Part shown: positions 5,806 to 14,558 of the stretch, in pieces
How positions within the stretch are numbered: the first letter of the stretch is position 1
How the letters are laid out: every line of letters starts with the position of its first letter
Assembly: GCA_016937945.1 (NCBI GenBank)
Contig: JAFGVP010000090.1
Span: 1-35,462 of the forward strand
Direction of reading: 5' to 3'
Source of the DNA: Pontiellaceae bacterium
GTDB taxonomy: Bacteria > Verrucomicrobiota > Kiritimatiellia > Kiritimatiellales > Pontiellaceae
DNA: 35,462 nt
Notes under the pieces: model-generated
What the model was told of the DNA's origin: nothing
What the model saw: only the letters and a program-made list of their open reading frames with translations
Database searches by the model: none
Position numbers and translations under genes: made by a program

Positions 5806-7554
5806 CTATTCGACACCCGCGCCGCTTTTCCAGTATGGCGAAGGAATGAACCCCAGTCCGCAAACCACCAGTTGGGAAAGCACGAAAACCATCAGCCAGA
5901 ATCCGGCGGAATCAGTAAATCCATAGGAGTGCAGCCCCACACTGAGCTGATTGACCCCGAACCACGACCACGCCGTCACGATATTACCGAAAACGGCCAT
6001 CACGGCAAAACCCCGATGTCGGATCATTCGGCCGTAGCGGGCATGAAGCAGAATCGCATTCCACATGACGATCAGAAGGGCGCCGTTTTCCTTCGGGTCC
6101 CAGCCCCAGAACCGCCCCCAGGAGTCATCTGCCCACAGACCGCCAAGCACCGTTCCGACAAAGCTGAACAGCAGCGCAAAGCAGGTGGTTCCATACATCA
6201 TGCGGTACATATCATCTTCGGTTGCCGCATCCAGCCGCCGCGTAAACAGACCGGCCAGAATATAAAACAGCCCCATTCCTCCTACGACAAATGTGGCCAC
6301 ATAGCCCATCGCCACGGTAATCACATGCGTCGCAAGCCAGAACCGCGTATCGAGCACCGCACGCATCTGCTCCATCGTATCGCCATCGCCGGCCAGATAC
6401 TGCGCGATCAGCAGGGTGAGAAAACCAGCAATACTGCCGATCAGATTACCGACGCCGCGCGTCCGGTCGCGGAAACCGATTTCCAGAATAATGCCGCAGG
6501 CCACGGCCGCCCAGCCGATAAAAATGGCGGAAGAATAGAGATTGGTAATCGGCGGATAGCCGGAAAGGAAACAGCGTGCAACAATTCCGAAGGTGTGCGG
6601 AATAAAAGAGGCAGCCATCAGGATTCCCGCAACATCCAGCAGCCCGTCCTTGCGCAGCAGCCAACCGAAACAGCTCAGCAGGAAAACCAGCAGATACATC
6701 CACTTAGCCCGCACAAACGCGTCAAGCCGGTTGAAAAAGAGCTCAAACCCGATCTTATGAAATGCGGCCGGATTCTCCTCATTCAGCTGCGAGCCATATT
6801 CCATCAGCGACCGGTTGAATCCGTCCACATCGCCGACGCGATACGCCTGCAGAAATGCCGCATATTTCATCGCCAGCGGATCCGCCGACGTCATGGGCCC
6901 TGAAAGCAGCGAGCTCATCAGCGGGCGCCAGCGCTCCTGCCCCGTATGCGGGGCAACAGCCAGCGGAATCGAGTTGCGCTCCAGCTGCATATAGCGCTGC
7001 GCCGTCGCAAGGCGTTGCTCCAGCGGAATCACGGAAGGATCTTCGAACGATGCCAGCGTACTCTCAAAAAGAAAGACCTTGTTGGACAGCCTGATAATCT
7101 GCCGATCGTAAAGATCGCGGGCCCGGTTTTCTTTGGCAAAGGCCGTTCGGGCCAGCTGATCCAGCTCCTCCATACGCGGCGCCAGCTCCATGTAGGAATA
7201 GCGGAAGCGCTTACGCTCCTCAAGCCCCAGACTGGAGAGCACGTCCAGGTTTTCGATCCGGAATACTTTATAGTCCAGCGCCTCGTGCTTTCCCGAAATG
7301 CCGTCGAGCAACCACTCCACGGCGGAAAGGCTCCTGCCGTCATCCGTGCGGATCGACTGCCGCCCAGAGAGCACGGTCAGCAGGTTGCGAGCAAAGGTAT
7401 CCACCGGTTTCCGGCGCCCCTCATACTTCAGCGGAAGCCTTGCAAACGCCTGCGTCTGAAAGGTGTCCGGCGCCTGCTTCGGCGGAGCAATTCCGATCAG
7501 GAAAATGAATGCCGCAAAGAAAAGCGTTAACAGGCGGATGATTGTACGCAGCAT
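5806..7554 (-). CDS. ccsA: Cytochrome c assembly protein CcsA/CcmC-like (system II)
   Basis: This integral membrane protein of 582 residues handles heme for attachment to apocytochromes c. The family's WWD motif is clear at about 474-491 (WADDSWGRFWGWDPKENG). Conserved histidines that could ligate heme lie at about 320, 410, 504 and 542. Residues 1-22 form an N-terminal membrane anchor, followed by a long extracytoplasmic region (about 25-280) and then a C-terminal block of eight or so helices. The long N-terminal extension is found in CcsA proteins of several non-proteobacterial phyla. Its ATG overlaps the stop of the upstream resB gene by one base (TGATG), so the two are translationally coupled and together form the heme export and ligation complex. 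Confidence 0.92.
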   Translation of the reverse strand: MLRTIIRLLTLFFAAFIFLIGIAPPKQAPDTFQTQAFARLPLKYEGRRKPVDTFARNLLTVLSGRQSIRTDDGRSLSAVEWLLDGISGKHEALDYKVFRIENLDVLSSLGLEERKRFRYSYMELAPRMEELDQLARTAFAKENRARDLYDRQIIRLSNKVFLFESTLASFEDPSVIPLEQRLATAQRYMQLERNSIPLAVAPHTGQERWRPLMSSLLSGPMTSADPLAMKYAAFLQAYRVGDVDGFNRSLMEYGSQLNEENPAAFHKIGFELFFNRLDAFVRAKWMYLLVFLLSCFGWLLRKDGLLDVAGILMAASFIPHTFGIVARCFLSGYPPITNLYSSAIFIGWAAVACGIILEIGFRDRTRGVGNLIGSIAGFLTLLIAQYLAGDGDTMEQMRAVLDTRFWLATHVITVAMGYVATFVVGGMGLFYILAGLFTRRLDAATEDDMYRMMYGTTCFALLFSFVGTVLGGLWADDSWGRFWGWDPKENGALLIVMWNAILLHARYGRMIRHRGFAVMAVFGNIVTAWSWFGVNQLSVGLHSYGFTDSAGFWLMVFVLSQLVVCGLGFIPSPYWKSGAGVE

Positions 7555-8975
7555 CAGTTGTCCCTCCGCAAATAGTGCCTGAACGTCAGAATAAACTGCG
7601 CCGTCATACCCACAAAAACAATCATGCAGGAGAGATACGGAATCATCCAGACATCGTTCCGGACAACCTGCAGCACGGTTCCGCTGTCATCGGGCAGATA
7701 GCCGGATTGATAAAACGTGCGCCGCGCATACCGCAGCGGATTGTTCATCCAGATGCGCAGTTCGCGATCAACCTCATCCCCCTGATTCACCAGCCGGATC
7801 TCGCTCGAAAAATCACGCGGCATCTGGGTGCCTTCATACCGCTCATGCCGGAAATCCAACAACGTGATCGCATACGCACTGCCCGATGGCGATTTCAGGT
7901 ATTCCCGCTTCGGCCGGAAATAAACTTCATATGAGCGGCCCCCTACCCCGATATGCGTCGGCATGTCCCACGCCCGTTTAACAAAGTTCGGATAAAACCA
8001 CGTCGTCAGGATATAACGCCCGAGCGATGCTCCGCTTTCGCGATCAATCAGTTCCACATCGACCGCCGGTGCATTACGCTCGCCCATGGTGCCGCTTACC
8101 GACCGTTTTGCCGCAATATACAGACGCGAACCATACCCTTCATATGCGGGATAACGGTCCCGGTTGGCCGCAGGCACATTATCCAGCGGCACCGGACTGT
8201 TGGAATTCAGCATGTAGCGATGCACTTTAATATCAAACGGCTGGCCGGCAGGATGCAGTACATCGCCATTTTTGAGCATCCGGTGCGGAATTGCGGTAAC
8301 CACCTGCCGAGCAGGATCCGTGGTTTCCGTAAACGCCAGCTCAAACTCGCGGGTGCGATCGACATAACTGACGGTTTCCCCCTCCTCCAGCGTCATCGAG
8401 GATTCAACCGCAAAATGCGCCGTAACAAATTCCCCGATCAACAGAAACAGGATCCCGCCGTGCAACATCACCATTCCGGCGCGCTGTCGATAGAGCAGAT
8501 GGCACGCAAAGAAAAGAACGCCGGCCGCCAGCGTACCGCGCCCCAGGCGAAAGAACACGCGCCAGAACGCATCATCCTCCGTAATCGCCACCGGTGCCGT
8601 ACCCCAGCCGAACATCACACCGGCCACGACAATCACTCCCAATATCAGCGCCAGAAGACCGGCCGTAAGTCGCCGCCCGCGGGCCAGCACTTTGAAGGTC
8701 GATGAATGTACTGCGATCAGGTTCAGCGAAAGCAGGCATCCGATCAGAAACCCGCCGGGAAAAGGAATCCTCAGATCATGCGGAATATTCCAGTTGCGCG
8801 GAAAAAAGATATAAAGGTCAATGTACGCAATGTAGCACCGGAAATACTGTTCCATGACGGTCCAGATGTCCCGGTCCACCTGCGCCAGCGTGCCGGCGAA
8901 AACCAGCACCATGCCCAGCGCCAGCAGCACAACCGTGAGCTTCAGCGATAGAAAAAAATCAATGACCTTGTTCAT
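7554..8975 (-). CDS. resB: Cytochrome c biogenesis protein ResB (Ccs1)
   Basis: The protein has 473 residues. N-terminal membrane helices include about 9-30 (LSLKLTVVLLALGMVLVFAG), with three more by about residue 170. A large extracytoplasmic domain spans about 175-440, and a last helix near 445-465 (YLSCMIVFVGMTAQFILTF). The start MNKVIDFFLSLKLTVVLL and the GTLAQVDRDIW segment are typical of ResB. ResB works with CcsA to deliver heme and join it to CXXCH apocytochromes outside the membrane. It is the middle gene of a lipoprotein-resB-ccsA operon: 70 bases separate it from the upstream lipoprotein, and its stop overlaps the ccsA start. I see nothing degenerate in it. Confidence 0.9.
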   Translation of the reverse strand: MNKVIDFFLSLKLTVVLLALGMVLVFAGTLAQVDRDIWTVMEQYFRCYIAYIDLYIFFPRNWNIPHDLRIPFPGGFLIGCLLSLNLIAVHSSTFKVLARGRRLTAGLLALILGVIVVAGVMFGWGTAPVAITEDDAFWRVFFRLGRGTLAAGVLFFACHLLYRQRAGMVMLHGGILFLLIGEFVTAHFAVESSMTLEEGETVSYVDRTREFELAFTETTDPARQVVTAIPHRMLKNGDVLHPAGQPFDIKVHRYMLNSNSPVPLDNVPAANRDRYPAYEGYGSRLYIAAKRSVSGTMGERNAPAVDVELIDRESGASLGRYILTTWFYPNFVKRAWDMPTHIGVGGRSYEVYFRPKREYLKSPSGSAYAITLLDFRHERYEGTQMPRDFSSEIRLVNQGDEVDRELRIWMNNPLRYARRTFYQSGYLPDDSGTVLQVVRNDVWMIPYLSCMIVFVGMTAQFILTFRHYLRRDN

Positions 8976-9752: not shown

Positions 9753-9826
9753 TTTTGAATTCACGTGGAATCGGACATGTAAACATGTTACTTCGTTAGA
9801 CCAATCCTGTGAAAATAAAGCATACT

Positions 9827-11323
9827 ATGAATCTGAACAGACCAGCCCAGAACGGAATCCCGATCAATCTATTTATCGCCGATCGCGCCTGCCTTGTTGT
9901 CGGCGGAGGGCGCGTTGCGCTGCGTAAAGCCCAGCTGCTGCTCGATGGCGGCGCCCGCGTGACGGTCATCAGCCCCGAGATCTGTGACGAGCTTTCGGCC
10001 ATAATTGACGAAGGAAAAATATCTCACATTCCGCGGCGGTTTGAGGACGGGGATGTGAATGCCGTCTATATGGTTTATGCGGCAACCAGCAGCCGCAGCG
10101 TGAACCGGCATGTACTCGAATGCTGCCGCGCAAATCGAGTACTATGCTGCTGCGCCGACGGTAACTGGGCAGACAGCGACTTTACCACGCCGGCCATCAC
10201 GCGGTATAAGGATTTAACACTTTCCGTATCCTCCGGCGGTAATGACTGCCGACAGTCAAAAATGGTCAAAAACAGTCTGGCCCGACATCTGAGGATGATC
10301 GATTCCGCCCACCTCGTCGTGGTCGGAACTGACCATCATCATCTGACGGTGGAAGAGCGCGAACCGTTTCATCTGATCGGACCGCGTTTCGAACGCGCCG
10401 GTTTTATGATCATGCAGCTTTGGGGCATTCATGAATACATGATCCTCAACACCTGCAACCGGGTGGAGGTTATTGCCGTGGTATCGGAAGAGACGGCAAA
10501 AAACGGTATTCTGCGCCACATCATGGGCTTCACCAACCTGAAGGAAGATAAGTATTACCTTAAAAGCGGCGAAGAGGCATTCGAGCACCTCTGCCTCGTG
10601 ACTGCCGGAATGCTCTCGCAGACGCCGGGTGAAAACCATATTACCTCCCAGATGAAGGAGGCGCTGGAGATCTCCAAAACCCGGGGATGGGCCGGCAACA
10701 TGATGCAGGAATGGATCTCCTCCGCCCTGTATATCTCAAAGATCATCAAGAACCGGATCGGTCCGCAGCTGAAAAACTATGAAATCGAAGAACTTTCTCT
10801 GCGCTACCTGGAAGCACATAACCTGATCAATCGGGAAACCACCCTGATGGTGCTGGGCGCCGGCATGGTTGGCCGAGGACTGGTGAAGGACAGCCTCCCG
10901 CTCGTTGGCCGCATTATCTGGTGCTACCACGTAAACAGGCCGGAGATTGAGCCTGCATGGGCGGATCGCATCGAGCTGTTTACCTTCAATGAAATGAAAA
11001 ACAAGATCACCGAGGCCGACATCATTGTCAGCGCAACCGATGCTCCCGGCTATCTGCTTCATCTGGGGCACGCCCCGTTTTTCAATCAGGAACGGCCGAT
11101 TACCGTGATCGATCTGGGAATGCCGCGCAATATTGACCCCGAACTGGACGACCTTTCCGCCGACGTGACCGTAGTCGATCTAGACGGCCTCAAATACTGG
11201 TACCGGCGCGAACTGACCGACATGAACAATATCCTGTCGCAGAGCCGCGAAGTGGTTACCGAAAACCGGAATCTCTATGACAAAATCACCAACAGTTTTA
11301 AAAGCGGGAACCCGCCCCAGTAA
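9827..11323 (+). CDS. hemA: Fused precorrin-2 dehydrogenase (siroheme synthase N-terminal type) and glutamyl-tRNA reductase
   Basis: The product is 498 residues from ATG 9827; a GTG at 9809 would add six. Residues 10-155 form a Met8/CysG-N-like NAD domain: LVVGGGRVALRKAQLLLDGG, then DFTTPAITRYKDLTLSVSSGG. Such domains oxidise precorrin-2 to sirohydrochlorin and may insert iron. Residues 162-498 are glutamyl-tRNA reductase, which makes glutamate-1-semialdehyde, the first precursor of tetrapyrroles. Its catalytic Cys210 lies in MILNTCNRVEV, with GENHITSQMKEAL, the NADPH fold LMVLGAGMVGRGL and IDLGMPRNIDPEL. The C-terminal dimerisation domain is only about 45 residues, half its usual length. The gene's last 47 bases also encode the start of the next gene. 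Fusing the first pathway step to a siroheme branch step suggests a siroheme or heme route via sirohydrochlorin. Both assignments are firm. Confidence 0.9.
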   Translation: MNLNRPAQNGIPINLFIADRACLVVGGGRVALRKAQLLLDGGARVTVISPEICDELSAIIDEGKISHIPRRFEDGDVNAVYMVYAATSSRSVNRHVLECCRANRVLCCCADGNWADSDFTTPAITRYKDLTLSVSSGGNDCRQSKMVKNSLARHLRMIDSAHLVVVGTDHHHLTVEEREPFHLIGPRFERAGFMIMQLWGIHEYMILNTCNRVEVIAVVSEETAKNGILRHIMGFTNLKEDKYYLKSGEEAFEHLCLVTAGMLSQTPGENHITSQMKEALEISKTRGWAGNMMQEWISSALYISKIIKNRIGPQLKNYEIEELSLRYLEAHNLINRETTLMVLGAGMVGRGLVKDSLPLVGRIIWCYHVNRPEIEPAWADRIELFTFNEMKNKITEADIIVSATDAPGYLLHLGHAPFFNQERPITVIDLGMPRNIDPELDDLSADVTVVDLDGLKYWYRRELTDMNNILSQSREVVTENRNLYDKITNSFKSGNPPQ

Positions 11324-13397
11324 CCTCGCACTGACCCAGACACGGCAGGCACTTGACCGGATTGAGGGCATGCTTGATGGGATTCGCTTCGAGATTTTGC
11401 CCATCACATCGGTTGGCGACACCGACCGCTCCACCGACCTGAGAGAAAGTCCGCCGGACTTCTTTACCCGGGAACTTGATCAGGCCCTGCTTGCCGAAGA
11501 TGTTGATTTTGCGGTACACAGCGCCAAAGACCTGCCCGCCCCGATGCCGGACGGAATTGACTGGTTCTGGCTGCCCTGGCGGGAAGAGCCGCGCGACGCA
11601 CTCATTCTCGCCCCCGGTCGTCAGCTTTCCGACCTGCCGGAAAATCCGGTCGCCGGCGTCAGCTCCGAACGTCGCGAAGCCTACTGCAAGAAGAAATTCC
11701 CCCACGGGATCCAGAAAACCATTCGCGGCAATATTGAAGAACGCATTGCCCAGGTAGACGCCGGCGTTTTTGATATCGTGGTCATGGCCGGTGCCGCGCT
11801 CGTCCGGCTCGGCCTTGAAGAACGAATTACGCAGTGGATTCCGCTGAATGAACTCGAAGTCCCCGAGGCTCAGGGCTATCTGGCCATCACCTTCCGCAAA
11901 GGTGATGAACGACTCATGGCCTTGCGATCACTCTTTTCCCGAACCGTGGTTTTTGCCGGCGCCGGCGTCAGCAACCGGGAGCTCTGCACCATCGCGGCCC
12001 TGCGCGCCCTCAACCGCTGTGACGTCTGCCTGTACGATTCACTGATTGATCCATCGCTTCTGAATGAACTTCCGCCTGGATCTGAAGCCATTGATGTCGG
12101 CAAGCGATGCGGCGCCCATAGCCAGGAGCAGCACGAAACCACGAAACTGATCTGCGAACTGGCTCGCCAGAGCAAGAAAGTACTGCGTCTCAAGGGCGGC
12201 GATCCCGGGATTTTCGGACGACTGGCCGAGGAGACCTCGGCGCTGGAGGCGCTTGAAATTCCGTTTCACGTTATCCCGGGCATCAGCGCCCTGCAGGCCG
12301 CGACAACGGGCACCGGCATGCTGCTTACACGACGCGACGTTTCCCGCGGCTTTGTAGCAGTGACTCCCCGCATGCAGGGCGGCGGCCTGGCCACCTGCGA
12401 TGCGTCGATGAAGGATCAGCTGCCCGTCATCTATTACATGGCGATCCGGGCGGTCGACCGCATTGCCGCACAGATGATTGATGGAGGGCATGCGCCTGAG
12501 ACTCCGGCGGCGCTGGTCTTTAATGCCGGAGGAGAGGATGAGGAAATCTTTCGAACCACACTCGATGAACTGCCGGATTTTGCCGGCAATCATTGCACCC
12601 GCAAACCGGGCCTTATCGTGGTAGGCGAAGTTACCCGTTATGCCTTCAGAAACAATCTAGGAGCACTTCAGGGTCAGCGTATTTTGATCACGGCATCCGA
12701 AGCCCTCCAGCAGAAAACCGCAGACCAAATCCGGGATCTCGGCGGACGCCCCGTGCAGTTTCCGCTGATCCGGCTCGTCTGCCGGCACGATCTTACAATG
12801 ACCTGCAGCGACTATGACTGGCTGGTCATCACATCCCCGTCCTCGGTCCGGGCCTTCATGGAAATTGTGCAACAGCGGAAAACGGACTTTCGGACCATTC
12901 CGAAAATCATGGTCTGCGGTCGCGGAACGGCCGCGGAGTTTGCTGAATACGGAATTCGGGTAGATGCCCGGCCGGAATCCGGCTTCAGTGCGAATTCCCT
13001 GATTGAACTGAGCAAATCGACGCTTAAACCGGGCGAAAGAGTGCTTCGGGTTCGCTCCGACAAAGCCGGCCCGGAACTGGCCGATGCCCTCCGGAAAACC
13101 GGAGCGGAAGTCGATGATGTGGTGATCTACGATAACGTCCGCGTTGAGCACGCCGAACTGCCGCCCTTTGACGCGGTCTTTTTCGCCAGTGCCTCCGGTG
13201 TTGAATCACTGGTCGGGCAATGGGGAGAAAGCGCTCTTGCCGGAAAAACCATGGTCGTCATCGGTCAGCCCACAGCTGATGCGCTGGACAAAATTAACCT
13301 TAAGCCGGACGTTATCGCCAGGGAAGCGACTGTCGATGGAGCCATCCAGTCGCTGGCAGAGCATCTCGTTTCCCGACGGATGGCATCGAGTAGCTGA
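11277..13397 (+). CDS. Three-domain fusion HemC (lacking domain 3) - CobA uroporphyrinogen-III methyltransferase - HemD uroporphyrinogen-III synthase
   Basis: There are 706 residues. Residues 7-222 match porphobilinogen deaminase: TRPSNLALTQTRQAL, TSVGDT, VDFAVHSAKDLP with catalytic Asp85, the cofactor-binding arginines in SSERREAYCKKK, IRGNIEERI and PEAQGYLAI. The chain then leaves HemC where domain 3 should begin, so the cysteine that carries the dipyrromethane cofactor is absent. Residues 223-458 are CobA/SUMT: VVFAGAGVSNRELCTIAAL, DVGKRCGAHSQEQHE, VLRLKGGDPGIFGRLAEET and PGISALQAATTGTGM. Residues 465-700 are HemD (RILITASEA, WLVITSPSSVRAF, LRVRSDKAGPEL). The enzymes are consecutive: porphobilinogen to hydroxymethylbilane, to uroporphyrinogen III, to precorrin-2, which the upstream dehydrogenase would use. 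The only plausible start is ATG 11277, inside the end of the previous gene, because the conserved TRPSNLAL lies in the overlap. Whether the deaminase part is active is uncertain. Confidence 0.9.
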   Translation: MTKSPTVLKAGTRPSNLALTQTRQALDRIEGMLDGIRFEILPITSVGDTDRSTDLRESPPDFFTRELDQALLAEDVDFAVHSAKDLPAPMPDGIDWFWLPWREEPRDALILAPGRQLSDLPENPVAGVSSERREAYCKKKFPHGIQKTIRGNIEERIAQVDAGVFDIVVMAGAALVRLGLEERITQWIPLNELEVPEAQGYLAITFRKGDERLMALRSLFSRTVVFAGAGVSNRELCTIAALRALNRCDVCLYDSLIDPSLLNELPPGSEAIDVGKRCGAHSQEQHETTKLICELARQSKKVLRLKGGDPGIFGRLAEETSALEALEIPFHVIPGISALQAATTGTGMLLTRRDVSRGFVAVTPRMQGGGLATCDASMKDQLPVIYYMAIRAVDRIAAQMIDGGHAPETPAALVFNAGGEDEEIFRTTLDELPDFAGNHCTRKPGLIVVGEVTRYAFRNNLGALQGQRILITASEALQQKTADQIRDLGGRPVQFPLIRLVCRHDLTMTCSDYDWLVITSPSSVRAFMEIVQQRKTDFRTIPKIMVCGRGTAAEFAEYGIRVDARPESGFSANSLIELSKSTLKPGERVLRVRSDKAGPELADALRKTGAEVDDVVIYDNVRVEHAELPPFDAVFFASASGVESLVGQWGESALAGKTMVVIGQPTADALDKINLKPDVIAREATVDGAIQSLAEHLVSRRMASSS

Positions 13398-13551: not shown

Positions 13552-14118
13552 ATGACAAAATGTACCCAGACGGTTTTCGCTTTTCCATCCTGTAAATCCC
13601 GAAAGTCCGCGCGGACTTTTCGGGCGGAAATATCACCTCATTCGGCGGGCTGCAACTTCTACGGCAGGCGGACTCTCAGCTTGGGCTGATCCGTTCTGCG
13701 GCACCACAGGAAATCATCCTGGACTTTGATGCCACTGACGATGCGGTGCACGGAGAGCAGGAAGGTCGTTTCTTTCACGGATACTACGACCGCTACTGCT
13801 TCCTGCCGCTCTACGTGTTCTGTGGTTCACAGCTGCTTTGCGCCTACCTGCGCCCCTCGAAGATCGACGGCGCAAAACACGCGTGGGCGATCCTTTCGCG
13901 GCTCGTCAAACGACTCCGGCAGGCCAGGCCGGAGGTAACCATCATCTTCCGCGGCGACAGCGGCTTCTGCCGCGGGAAAATACTGCGCAGGTGTGATCGC
14001 CACGGCGTGGACTACATCCTTGGACCGGCCAAGAACAAAAGACTCAAGGCCATGGGCGCTGCATTTATGGCCGAGGCCGAAGCCCGCTTCTGCGAAACCG
14101 GTGAAAAGCAACGGCTTG
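13552..14118 (+). pseudogene. IS1380-family transposase remnant (frameshift, internal deletion, 3' truncation)
   Basis: ATG 13552 opens MTKCTQTVFAFPSCKSRK, typical of IS1380 transposases. One base seems lost near 13609, after which a second frame continues with ADFSGGNITSFGGLQLLRQA. That frame then jumps directly to the DDE core, EIILDFDATDDAVHGEQEG, followed by FFHGYYDRYCFLPLYVF and VTIIFRGDSGFCRGKILRR. In full members of the family about 120 residues lie between these blocks, and about 150-200 more follow GEKQRL, where the match stops near 14118. The remnant therefore retains the first two catalytic Asp regions but cannot be active. Terminal inverted repeats were not identified; the left end should lie between about 13440 and 13550. 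It marks the left edge of a block of decayed genes. Confidence 0.8.
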
Positions 14119-14134
14119 AAGTCGCCCCAAGCTT

Positions 14135-14558
14135 TCAAACGGGGAGTTGCTGTCGCTGAAATACCGACAATCCGTCATAATACACATCGCTACTGCTTTT
14201 ATAAAACGATTGCCAGCCCAGCGAGTGCCCGAGCTCATGCGGAATCAGGGAGCGGAAATCTATCATCCCCGTCGCCGGCGCATCCACCCCGAAGCTCATG
14301 GGAAAAGAGTCGTTGTATAGAATATAGCTGTCCCATGGATTCGAAATATCAACCGCTTCCCGCCAGGCAACTTCAGCATCGGTCAGGTATACCGGCCAGC
14401 TACTCCGCGCTTCATGCCATGGTATTAGTCGAACTGTTCCAGACCTCCCCGACATCATAGCGGCAAATGTTAAACCACCCATGCGAATCAATGGTTACCG
14501 CACCAACGGACGAAGCATACAGGAGCGCTCCGATGCAGAGAGATCTCTTTATCGGCAT
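14135..14558 (-). pseudogene. Secreted HELGH zinc metalloprotease, frameshifted and 3'-truncated
   Basis: ATG 14558 begins MPIKRSLCIGALLYASSVGA, a signal peptide, and the frame continues VTIDSHGWFNICRYDVGEVW to a stop at 14412. A second minus-strand frame carries on with EARSSWPVYLTDAEVAWREA and SLIPHELGHSLGWQSFYKSS, containing the zinc-binding HExGH motif, and stops at 14135 beside the transposase remnant. A single frameshift near 14415-14430 would join both pieces into one reading frame. The protein then ends shortly after the active site, where about half of a metalloprotease would be expected to follow. It resembles secreted metalloproteases with a FR-x(4)-HELGHxLG core found in PEP-CTERM-bearing bacteria, but the family is inferred from the motif only. 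The upstream flagellin-like remnant overlaps its start by ten bases. Confidence 0.6.

What the first reader, a model, noticed from the sequence alone, without database searches (positions are those of the whole stretch)
11277..13397. HemC without its cofactor domain, fused to CobA and HemD
The porphobilinogen deaminase part keeps catalytic Asp85, the cofactor-binding arginines and IRGNIEERI, but stops at PEAQGYLAITFRKGD, where domain 3 normally begins, and CobA starts at once. Domain 3 carries the cysteine that anchors the dipyrromethane primer in all well-studied HemC. Either the primer is held non-covalently, another protein supplies the domain, the CobA part replaces it structurally, or the HemC part is not active and a second hemC exists. 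No frame between the two parts restores domain 3.
Basis: partly seen in the sequence, partly recalled or inferred. Interest (0 to 1): 0.8.

Follow-up and report, generated by a model that had tools for sequence, protein, structure and literature searches.

The report
Bilane synthase lacking its cofactor domain
An enzyme that strings four pyrroles together on the way to heme and vitamin B12 has here lost the whole domain, and the cysteine, that is known to hold its built-in primer, and the same shortened enzyme turns up in several bacterial phyla, so it probably works without the covalently attached cofactor described in textbooks.

Summary
Confirmed. ORF 11277-13397 (+, 706 aa) joins HemC domains 1-2, CobA and HemD; HemC domain 3 (PF03900), which carries the dipyrromethane-anchoring cysteine, is absent from the protein and the genome, whose only hemC this is. 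It is neither an assembly error nor peculiar to the fusion: 41 of 43 hemC-bearing genomes sampled in the class lack domain 3, as do, by frame length and PF03900, 79 of 80 in Chlamydiota, and part of Omnitrophota. Short and full-length HemC lie on opposite sides of one supported branch. All 169 distinct short sequences keep Arg11, Asp84, Arg132, Arg149 and Arg176 (E. coli numbering), while lid and other positions changed. Three complete stand-alone short HemC beside other hem genes contain no cysteine, so no thioether anchor can exist there. Best explanation: an active hydroxymethylbilane synthase holding its primer non-covalently. Primer-free synthesis, or a new anchor in some branches, is not excluded. 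Free domain 3, second hemC, dead HemC and CobA-as-substitute find little support. Nothing was tested biochemically.

The parts
11277..13397 (+). 706-aa fusion: domain-3-less HemC, CobA (uroporphyrinogen-III C-methyltransferase), HemD (uroporphyrinogen-III synthase)
   Evidence: AlphaFold2 model of the whole protein mean pLDDT 91.4, pTM 0.90
11301..11918 (+). HemC domains 1-2 (residues 9-214); last helix 211-217, then CobA strand 1 at 224-228
   Evidence: PF01379; secondary structure
11451..11480 (+). Altered active-site lid PPDFFTRELD (residues 59-68), where full-length HemC has GGKGLF-type sequence
11529..11531 (+). Catalytic Asp85 (E. coli Asp84)
   Evidence: in 169 of 169 distinct short and 97 of 97 full sequences
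11685..11687 (+). Cys137, the only cysteine of the HemC part; absent in a same-genus relative (L033)
11919..11942 (+). HemC-CobA junction (residues 215-222): place where domain 3 would follow
11943..12641 (+). CobA part (residues 223-455)
   Evidence: TIGR01469 205.3 bits, cut-off 185
12714..13349 (+). HemD part (residues 480-691)
   Evidence: PF02602 151.2 bits
9809..11323 (+). Upstream overlapping gene: CysG N-terminal (precorrin-2 dehydrogenase-like) domain fused to HemA; HemA lacks its C-terminal dimerisation domain
   Evidence: PF13241, PF05201, PF01488 and no PF00745 at E<=1; TIGR01035 matched to position 336 of 416; overlaps the fusion ORF by 47 bases

Best explanation
The HemC part belongs to a distinct, active lineage of hydroxymethylbilane synthase that consists of domains 1 and 2 only. 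It still binds porphobilinogen and the growing chain in the arginine-lined cleft, deaminates with the conserved aspartate and hands the bilane to HemD, here on the same chain. With the anchoring domain and cysteine gone, the primer (a dipyrromethane or a bilane) is most likely held non-covalently by the conserved Arg/Ser/Lys cluster under a re-shaped lid (DFFTR-type in place of GGKGLF-type). Shown: the architecture, the lineage-wide loss, retention of catalytic residues, absence of cysteine in some members, and their place beside other hem genes. Inferred: that it is active, and that the primer is non-covalent.
For: Domain 3 absent from protein and genome, from 41 of 43 hemC-bearing class genomes, by frame length and PF03900 from 79 of 80 Chlamydiota hemC genomes (50 of the 80 looked at in detail, 49 without domain 3), and from 20 of 20 other genomes with short HemC. 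Of 169 distinct short sequences 169 keep R11, Q19, S81, K83, D84, R132, R149, R176, Q198 and G199 (E. coli numbering) and 168 keep S13 and R155. Complete stand-alone short HemC without any cysteine: L131 (225 aa from its ATG), L252 (206 aa), L206 (216 aa), each beside other tetrapyrrole genes (named by eye). Short and full split at one branch: SH-aLRT 98, 95 after lid and other diagnostic columns were removed, 100/97 in the careful tree. hemB is present in all 43 hemC genomes of the class sample. The short stand-alone model L122 (231 aa, pLDDT 93.2) matches E. coli HemC 1pda at TM 0.87, rmsd 1.5. HemC is the best conserved part of the fusion: mean identity 56.6% vs 50.6% CobA and 45.0% HemD in 37 relatives; NG86 dN/dS about 0.1 for HemC in the two pairs where dS could be computed. 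No invariant new nucleophile appears: lid Asp at position 60 in 148 of 169, Asp at 48 in 156 of 169.
Against: No activity, product or cofactor measurement exists here. In characterised enzymes the cofactor cysteine is called invariant (PMC3949521, passages; textbook account in PMC7242693, passages). In the window's own group most members keep cysteines that could in principle be used: C137 in 27 of 38, C237 in 31, C251 in 35. In 45 of 169 short sequences a cysteine stands at E. coli position 172, which lines the pyrrole chain, as a new covalent anchor might. A very divergent domain 3 in another protein could escape a profile search. One fused genome of another class (G052) has no hemB hit, and the genome of the cysteine-free L206 (G348) has a ferrochelatase match with one internal stop, so not every carrier need have a working pathway. 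The tree is unrooted and its bootstrap had not settled.
Confidence: 0.55

Rival explanations
1. Primer-free synthesis: the enzyme starts on a porphobilinogen whose aminomethyl group stays intact and makes an aminomethylbilane (or passes an azafulvene straight to HemD) instead of extending a dipyrromethane.
For: No cysteine in several complete enzymes; Arg131, which helps E. coli HemC to bind its cofactor (PMC3945110, passages), is kept in only 126 of 169 short but 97 of 97 full sequences, and Gly173 became Ala in 154 of 169; short HemC is often fused to HemD (104 of 169 distinct; against 1 of 99 full).
Against: Residues that contact the cofactor rings (Ser128, Ser129, Arg132, Arg155, Ala170, Gln198) are kept in 172 to 177 of 177 short sequences. 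The fusion count is inflated by sampling around the window's class; among the Chlamydiota looked at it is 14 of 49, among the Omnitrophota short ones 5 of 20.
Confidence: 0.15
2. A new covalent anchor replaced the domain-3 cysteine, for example Cys at P0001 position 173 (E. coli Ala172) in many relatives, and another cysteine (C137, or C237/C251 at the start of CobA) in the window's group.
For: Cys173 in 28 of 28 sequences of groups B and C and in 45 of 169 distinct short against 3 of 97 full; Ala172 contacts the elongating chain in E. coli simulations (PMC3945110 Table 1, passage).
Against: No single cysteine is universal: Cys173 is in 1 of 38 of the window's group, L033 and L052 have none in the HemC part, and L131, L206 and L252 have none at all. 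Cys173 needs 6 changes on the tree.
Confidence: 0.18
3. Domain 3 is supplied in trans by an unrecognised protein.
For: Profile searches can miss very divergent domains; the cofactor domain of G316 itself scored below the PF03900 cut-off.
Against: 0 of 20 genomes at E<=1; nothing in the own genome; 0 of 92 Chlamydiota over the cut-off, and of the 10 with a match at E<=1 only that of G316 lies in a HemC frame. The direct neighbours of hemC in L252 look like known hem genes by eye; in L131 the upstream neighbour is a 136-aa protein that I read, by eye, as JAB/MPN-like.
Confidence: 0.06
4. The fused CobA (or HemD) part takes the structural place of domain 3.
For: CobA follows HemC directly in the window and in 59 of the 66 fusions of the Verrucomicrobiota-type set.
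Against: 60 complete short HemC frames carry neither CobA nor HemD behind HemC (two of them, L139 and L159, have HemA in front), 25 of 177 are fused straight to HemD, and L104, 74% identical in HemC to the window, is HemC-HemD without CobA.
Confidence: 0.03
5. The HemC part is inactive and another source makes the bilane.
For: Loss of the cofactor domain would be expected to kill a known HemC.
Against: Only hemC in the genome, hemB present, complete set of the catalytic residues examined, strongest conservation of the three parts; in Chlamydiota 79 of 80 hemC genomes also have a ferrochelatase match.
Confidence: 0.02

Closest known systems
Canonical hydroxymethylbilane synthase / porphobilinogen deaminase (E. 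coli HemC, PDB 1pda)
   Same: Domains 1 and 2, catalytic Asp84, the arginine cluster, Ser81/Lys83, Gln198; fold match TM 0.87 for a short stand-alone member
   Different: No domain 3, no Cys242 equivalent, lid GGKGLF-type replaced by DFFTR-type, Arg101/Thr154/Lys158 no longer conserved
NCBIfam NF002202 (PRK01066.1), a 241-position hydroxymethylbilane synthase model
   Same: A short HemC of the same length class; it matches stand-alone short HemC over most of its length
   Different: P0001 and the five short proteins tested stay below its cut-off of 251 bits; its description does not mention a missing cofactor site. That it describes chlamydial HemC is recalled, not tested.
CobA-HemD fusions and CysG-type CobA (TIGR01469)
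   Same: The CobA part passes the TIGR01469 cut-off; separate proteins that I read by eye as CobA-HemD follow short HemC in L122 and L131
   Different: Here HemC is joined in front of them in one chain

Membership tests
Hydroxymethylbilane synthase (HemC) | Sequence profile TIGR00212 above curated cut-off | tested here: met
   178.1 bits, cut-off 164, but only profile 1-211 of 293
Hydroxymethylbilane synthase (HemC) | Catalytic Asp84 and conserved active-site arginines | tested here: met
   in the lineage R131 is kept in only 126 of 169 short sequences, and E. coli Arg232 lies in the missing domain
Hydroxymethylbilane synthase (HemC) | Domain 3 carrying the dipyrromethane-binding cysteine | tested here: not met
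   for the window; for eight relatives
Hydroxymethylbilane synthase (HemC) | Covalently bound dipyrromethane cofactor | not testable with these tools
   Thioether form impossible in cysteine-free members; open for the window protein
Hydroxymethylbilane synthase (HemC) | Makes hydroxymethylbilane from porphobilinogen | not testable with these tools
   Needs expression and assay
Uroporphyrinogen-III C-methyltransferase (CobA) | TIGR01469 above cut-off | tested here: met
   205.3 bits, cut-off 185
Uroporphyrinogen-III synthase (HemD) | PF02602 above cut-off | tested here: met
   151.2 bits, cut-off 27.5
NCBIfam PRK01066.1 (short hydroxymethylbilane synthase) | Score above the curated cut-off of 251 bits | tested here: not met
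   124.4 bits

The most novel reading that the evidence does not exclude
A whole lineage of hydroxymethylbilane synthase, the usual form in the Chlamydiota and in the window's class as sampled here, and present in part of Omnitrophota and a few Bacteroidales, builds the tetrapyrrole chain with no covalently attached cofactor, either on a freely bound primer or with no primer at all; since the tree is unrooted, the two-domain form might even be the older one.
Probability: 0.6. Interest if true: 0.88.

Novelty: new variant of a known kind. Interest (0 to 1): 0.78.

Why it matters
The self-made, cysteine-bound dipyrromethane is the classic oddity of tetrapyrrole synthesis, and its cysteine is called invariant (PMC3949521, passages). 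A natural lineage without that cysteine would show that the tether is dispensable, would give small cysteine-free enzymes in which to ask what the primer does, and would change how this step is understood across a bacterial phylum. Short HemC are already named hydroxymethylbilane synthase by NCBIfam. Eight literature searches (open-licence PMC papers only, at most 20 listed per search) showed no paper, judged from titles and starts of abstracts, about a HemC with the cofactor site missing in nature.

Tried and rejected
Assembly error: rejected, the architecture recurs across genomes. Second hemC or free domain 3: not found within detection limits. CobA as structural stand-in: made unlikely by stand-alone and HemC-HemD forms. 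A universal replacement cysteine: looked for and not found. The first idea that Cys173 is the new anchor everywhere: kept only as a rival, because it is missing in the window's group and in cysteine-free members. Distances from Cys137, Cys173 or the lid to the cofactor site could not be measured: no model coordinates were in the Python box.

Limits of the counts. Not every short sequence has the Asp lid: position 60 is Asn in 13, Gly in 3, Gln in 2 and His in 2 of 169. The 66 fusions include the window itself. In one search L001 and L004 were dropped as duplicates; L177, L181 and L183 were dropped from the short set (GGKG-like lid and tails of 79, 30 and 93 residues; L181 also has no cysteine, and looks like a broken full-length gene by eye). 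In the trees (98 of 279 rows, picked by group quota) such rows were labelled full. Some loci were fetched twice under two handles; one search repeats the counts on distinct sequences (169 of 177 short, 97 of 99 full). Overlaps between the hemC, hemB and ferrochelatase genome lists were compared by eye. G159 has a second, partial PF01379 match and G228 two fusion copies. The twenty Bacteroidales loci were not analysed further.
Full report
What is there. The 706-residue ORF at 11277-13397 (+) reads HemC domains 1-2 (residues 9-214), CobA (223-455 by TIGR01469) and HemD (480-691). Domain 3 of HemC (PF03900) is not in the protein at E<=1, nor in the genome (also at E<=1), which is 94.6% complete, and PF01379 occurs once. 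The predicted model of the fusion is confident (mean pLDDT 91.4, pTM 0.90): HemC ends with its helix 211-217 and CobA's first strand starts at 224. The gene overlaps an upstream CysG_N-HemA fusion (9809-11323) that itself lacks the HemA dimerisation domain. hemB lies on another contig. Next to the pair, on the other strand, are a CcsA-like and a ResB-like cytochrome c assembly gene.

Not an artefact, not only this fusion. Of 194 genomes of the phylum, 119 have PF01379. Of the 43 such genomes in the window's own genus, order and class, 41 have it in frames of 489 residues or more and show no PF03900 over the cut-off; G056 and G177 have a full-length HemC, as has G200 in another draw of the class. 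Seven more genomes of other classes have frames of 713-769 residues. Of 66 fused HemC that I fetched (the window included), 38 are HemC-CobA-HemD close to the window (group A), 21 have a more divergent CobA (group B) and 7 are HemC-HemD without CobA (group C). A scan of named genomes found stand-alone short HemC in frames of 223-247 residues in Omnitrophota, Chlamydiae, WS1 and unnamed records, and fused ones in Bacteroidota, Spirochaetes and other records. In the phylum of the Chlamydiae record L166, 80 of 92 genomes have PF01379; in 79 the frame is 203-285 or 418-476 residues, and in one (G316) it is 332 residues with a weak domain-3 match (E 5.2e-4, below cut-off). Of the 80 I read 50: 35 short alone, 14 HemC-HemD, 1 (L183, G316) with a 93-residue tail. 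Omnitrophota (67 of 117 with hemC) hold both kinds. In Bacteroidales 38 of 198 genomes have hemC and four sit in frames of 690-737 residues. Twenty genomes with short HemC reached through the scan have no PF03900 at E<=1.

One lineage. In a tree of 98 of the 279 HemC rows (domains 1-2 only), full-length and short sequences are the two sides of one branch: SH-aLRT 98, 95 after removing the lid and other diagnostic columns, 100/97 with ultrafast bootstrap and SH-aLRT in the careful tree, and in 100% of 200 bootstrap trees (the bootstrap had not settled). One short row, L157 (WS1), lies next to the full side. The tree is unrooted, so loss in one ancestor and late gain of domain 3 cannot be told apart; loss followed by spread is my simpler guess, because full-length HemC is found in archaea and most bacteria (general knowledge; here the archaeal rows L134 and L151).

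What stayed and what changed. Among 169 distinct short and 97 distinct full sequences (E. coli numbering), R11, Q19, S81, K83, D84, R132, R149, A170, R176, Q198 and G199 are in 169 of 169 short sequences, S13 and R155 in 168. Most of these contact the cofactor or chain in the E. coli simulations of PMC3945110 (passages). Changed together are the lid (G60 to Asp in 148 and Asn in 13; L61 to Phe in 163), I48 to Asp (156), G173 to Ala (154), and positions conserved in full-length HemC (R101 in 97 of 97 full but 30 of 169 short; K158 93 against 21; T154 in 91 full). R131, which helps to bind the cofactor, is kept in 126 of 169. In the E. coli simulations the lid lysine K55 touches Q243, E305 and V306 of domain 3 (PMC3945110, passage), so a new lid is what loss of the domain would favour; that is inference.

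No cysteine, no thioether. No cysteine is common to the short enzymes. In group A, C137 is in 27 of 38, C237 in 31 and C251 in 35; L033, from the same genus and 71% identical overall, has none in its HemC part. Of 61 stand-alone or HemA-joined short frames, L131 (225 aa from its ATG), L252 (206 aa) and L206 (216 aa) are complete HemC with no cysteine; in L159 the HemC part of a HemA-HemC frame has none, and L181, also without, was set aside. By eye, L131 lies before cobA-hemD, hemB and hemL; L252 between hemA (confirmed by Pfam) and cobA plus hemB; L206 before hemD. For these a cysteine-linked cofactor is ruled out by composition, if the gene models are right. By contrast the 28 sequences of groups B and C all have Cys at P0001 position 173 (E. 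coli A172), a residue that lines the chain; 45 of 169 short against 3 of 97 full sequences have it. It may be a new anchor in those branches, which is why the covalent rival keeps 0.18.

Is it active? Indirect evidence says yes: sole hemC, hemB present in all 43 hemC genomes of the class sample, catalytic residues kept, and the HemC part better conserved than the fused CobA (33 of 37 relatives) and HemD (36 of 37), with NG86 dN/dS about 0.1 against L033 and L034 (dS is near saturation, and for L035 it could not be computed for HemC). In Chlamydiota 79 of 80 hemC genomes also have a ferrochelatase match, so the route to heme continues behind the short enzyme. Against: G052, a fused genome of another class, has no hemB hit, and the ferrochelatase match in G348, home of L206, has one internal stop. 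The 231-residue stand-alone protein L122 is predicted with pLDDT 93.2 and pTM 0.88 and matches E. coli HemC over 218 columns (TM 0.87, rmsd 1.5).

Mechanism. The most economical reading is a hydroxymethylbilane synthase that keeps a primer by charge and shape alone: the dipyrromethane sits in the largely unchanged Arg/Ser/Lys cage, four porphobilinogens are added, and the bilane is released to HemD. E. coli apoenzyme is reported to take up preuroporphyrinogen to form its cofactor (titles in the reference lists of PMC7242693 and PMC7907807; those papers were not read), so bilane binding by the protein is plausible. Primer-free synthesis giving an aminomethylbilane is the boldest alternative and would fit the frequent fusion to HemD. 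None of this was measured.

Literature. The cofactor cysteine is called invariant in PMC3949521 (passages) and is the account given in PMC7242693 (passages); human HemC binds the chain exclusively through Cys261 (PMC7907807, passage). Eight searches of the open library (at most 20 listed each) listed nothing that, by title and abstract start, treats a natural HemC without domain 3. NCBIfam has a 241-position HemC model that matches short HemC below its cut-off, so short sequences are known to annotators; I found no discussion of the missing cofactor site in what I could search.

Noticed in passing
window 9809-11323: The upstream CysG_N-HemA fusion lacks the HemA C-terminal dimerisation domain and the end of the CysG N-terminal model (matched to 135 of 205); HemA next to short HemC in L122 and L252 also shows no PF00745.
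   Followed up: partly
window 5806-8975 (-): CcsA-like (Cytochrom_C_asm) and ResB-like genes, a cytochrome c assembly pair, stand beside the tetrapyrrole operon on the other strand, hinting at a need for heme.
   Followed up: no
window 13746-14156 (+): Remnant of a DDE transposase (PF13701, profile positions 151-279 of 435) just behind the fusion gene.
   Followed up: no
L069-L081 and L086-L100, P0001 position 173: Cysteine at the E. coli Ala172 position in 28 of 28 group B and C short HemC: possible relocated cofactor anchor.
   Followed up: partly
L104:1853-3208: A Kiritimatiellales relative (74% in HemC) has HemC joined straight to HemD, the CobA part missing.
   Followed up: partly
L129 and L159 (same genome, G241): An Omnitrophota genome holds two different short HemC, one HemC-CobA-HemD and one HemA-HemC; real pair or binning mix unknown.
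   Followed up: no
L183 (G316): The one Chlamydiota genome of 80 with a longer HemC (332 aa frame, GGKN lid, weak domain-3 match); it groups with full-length HemC in the tree.
   Followed up: partly
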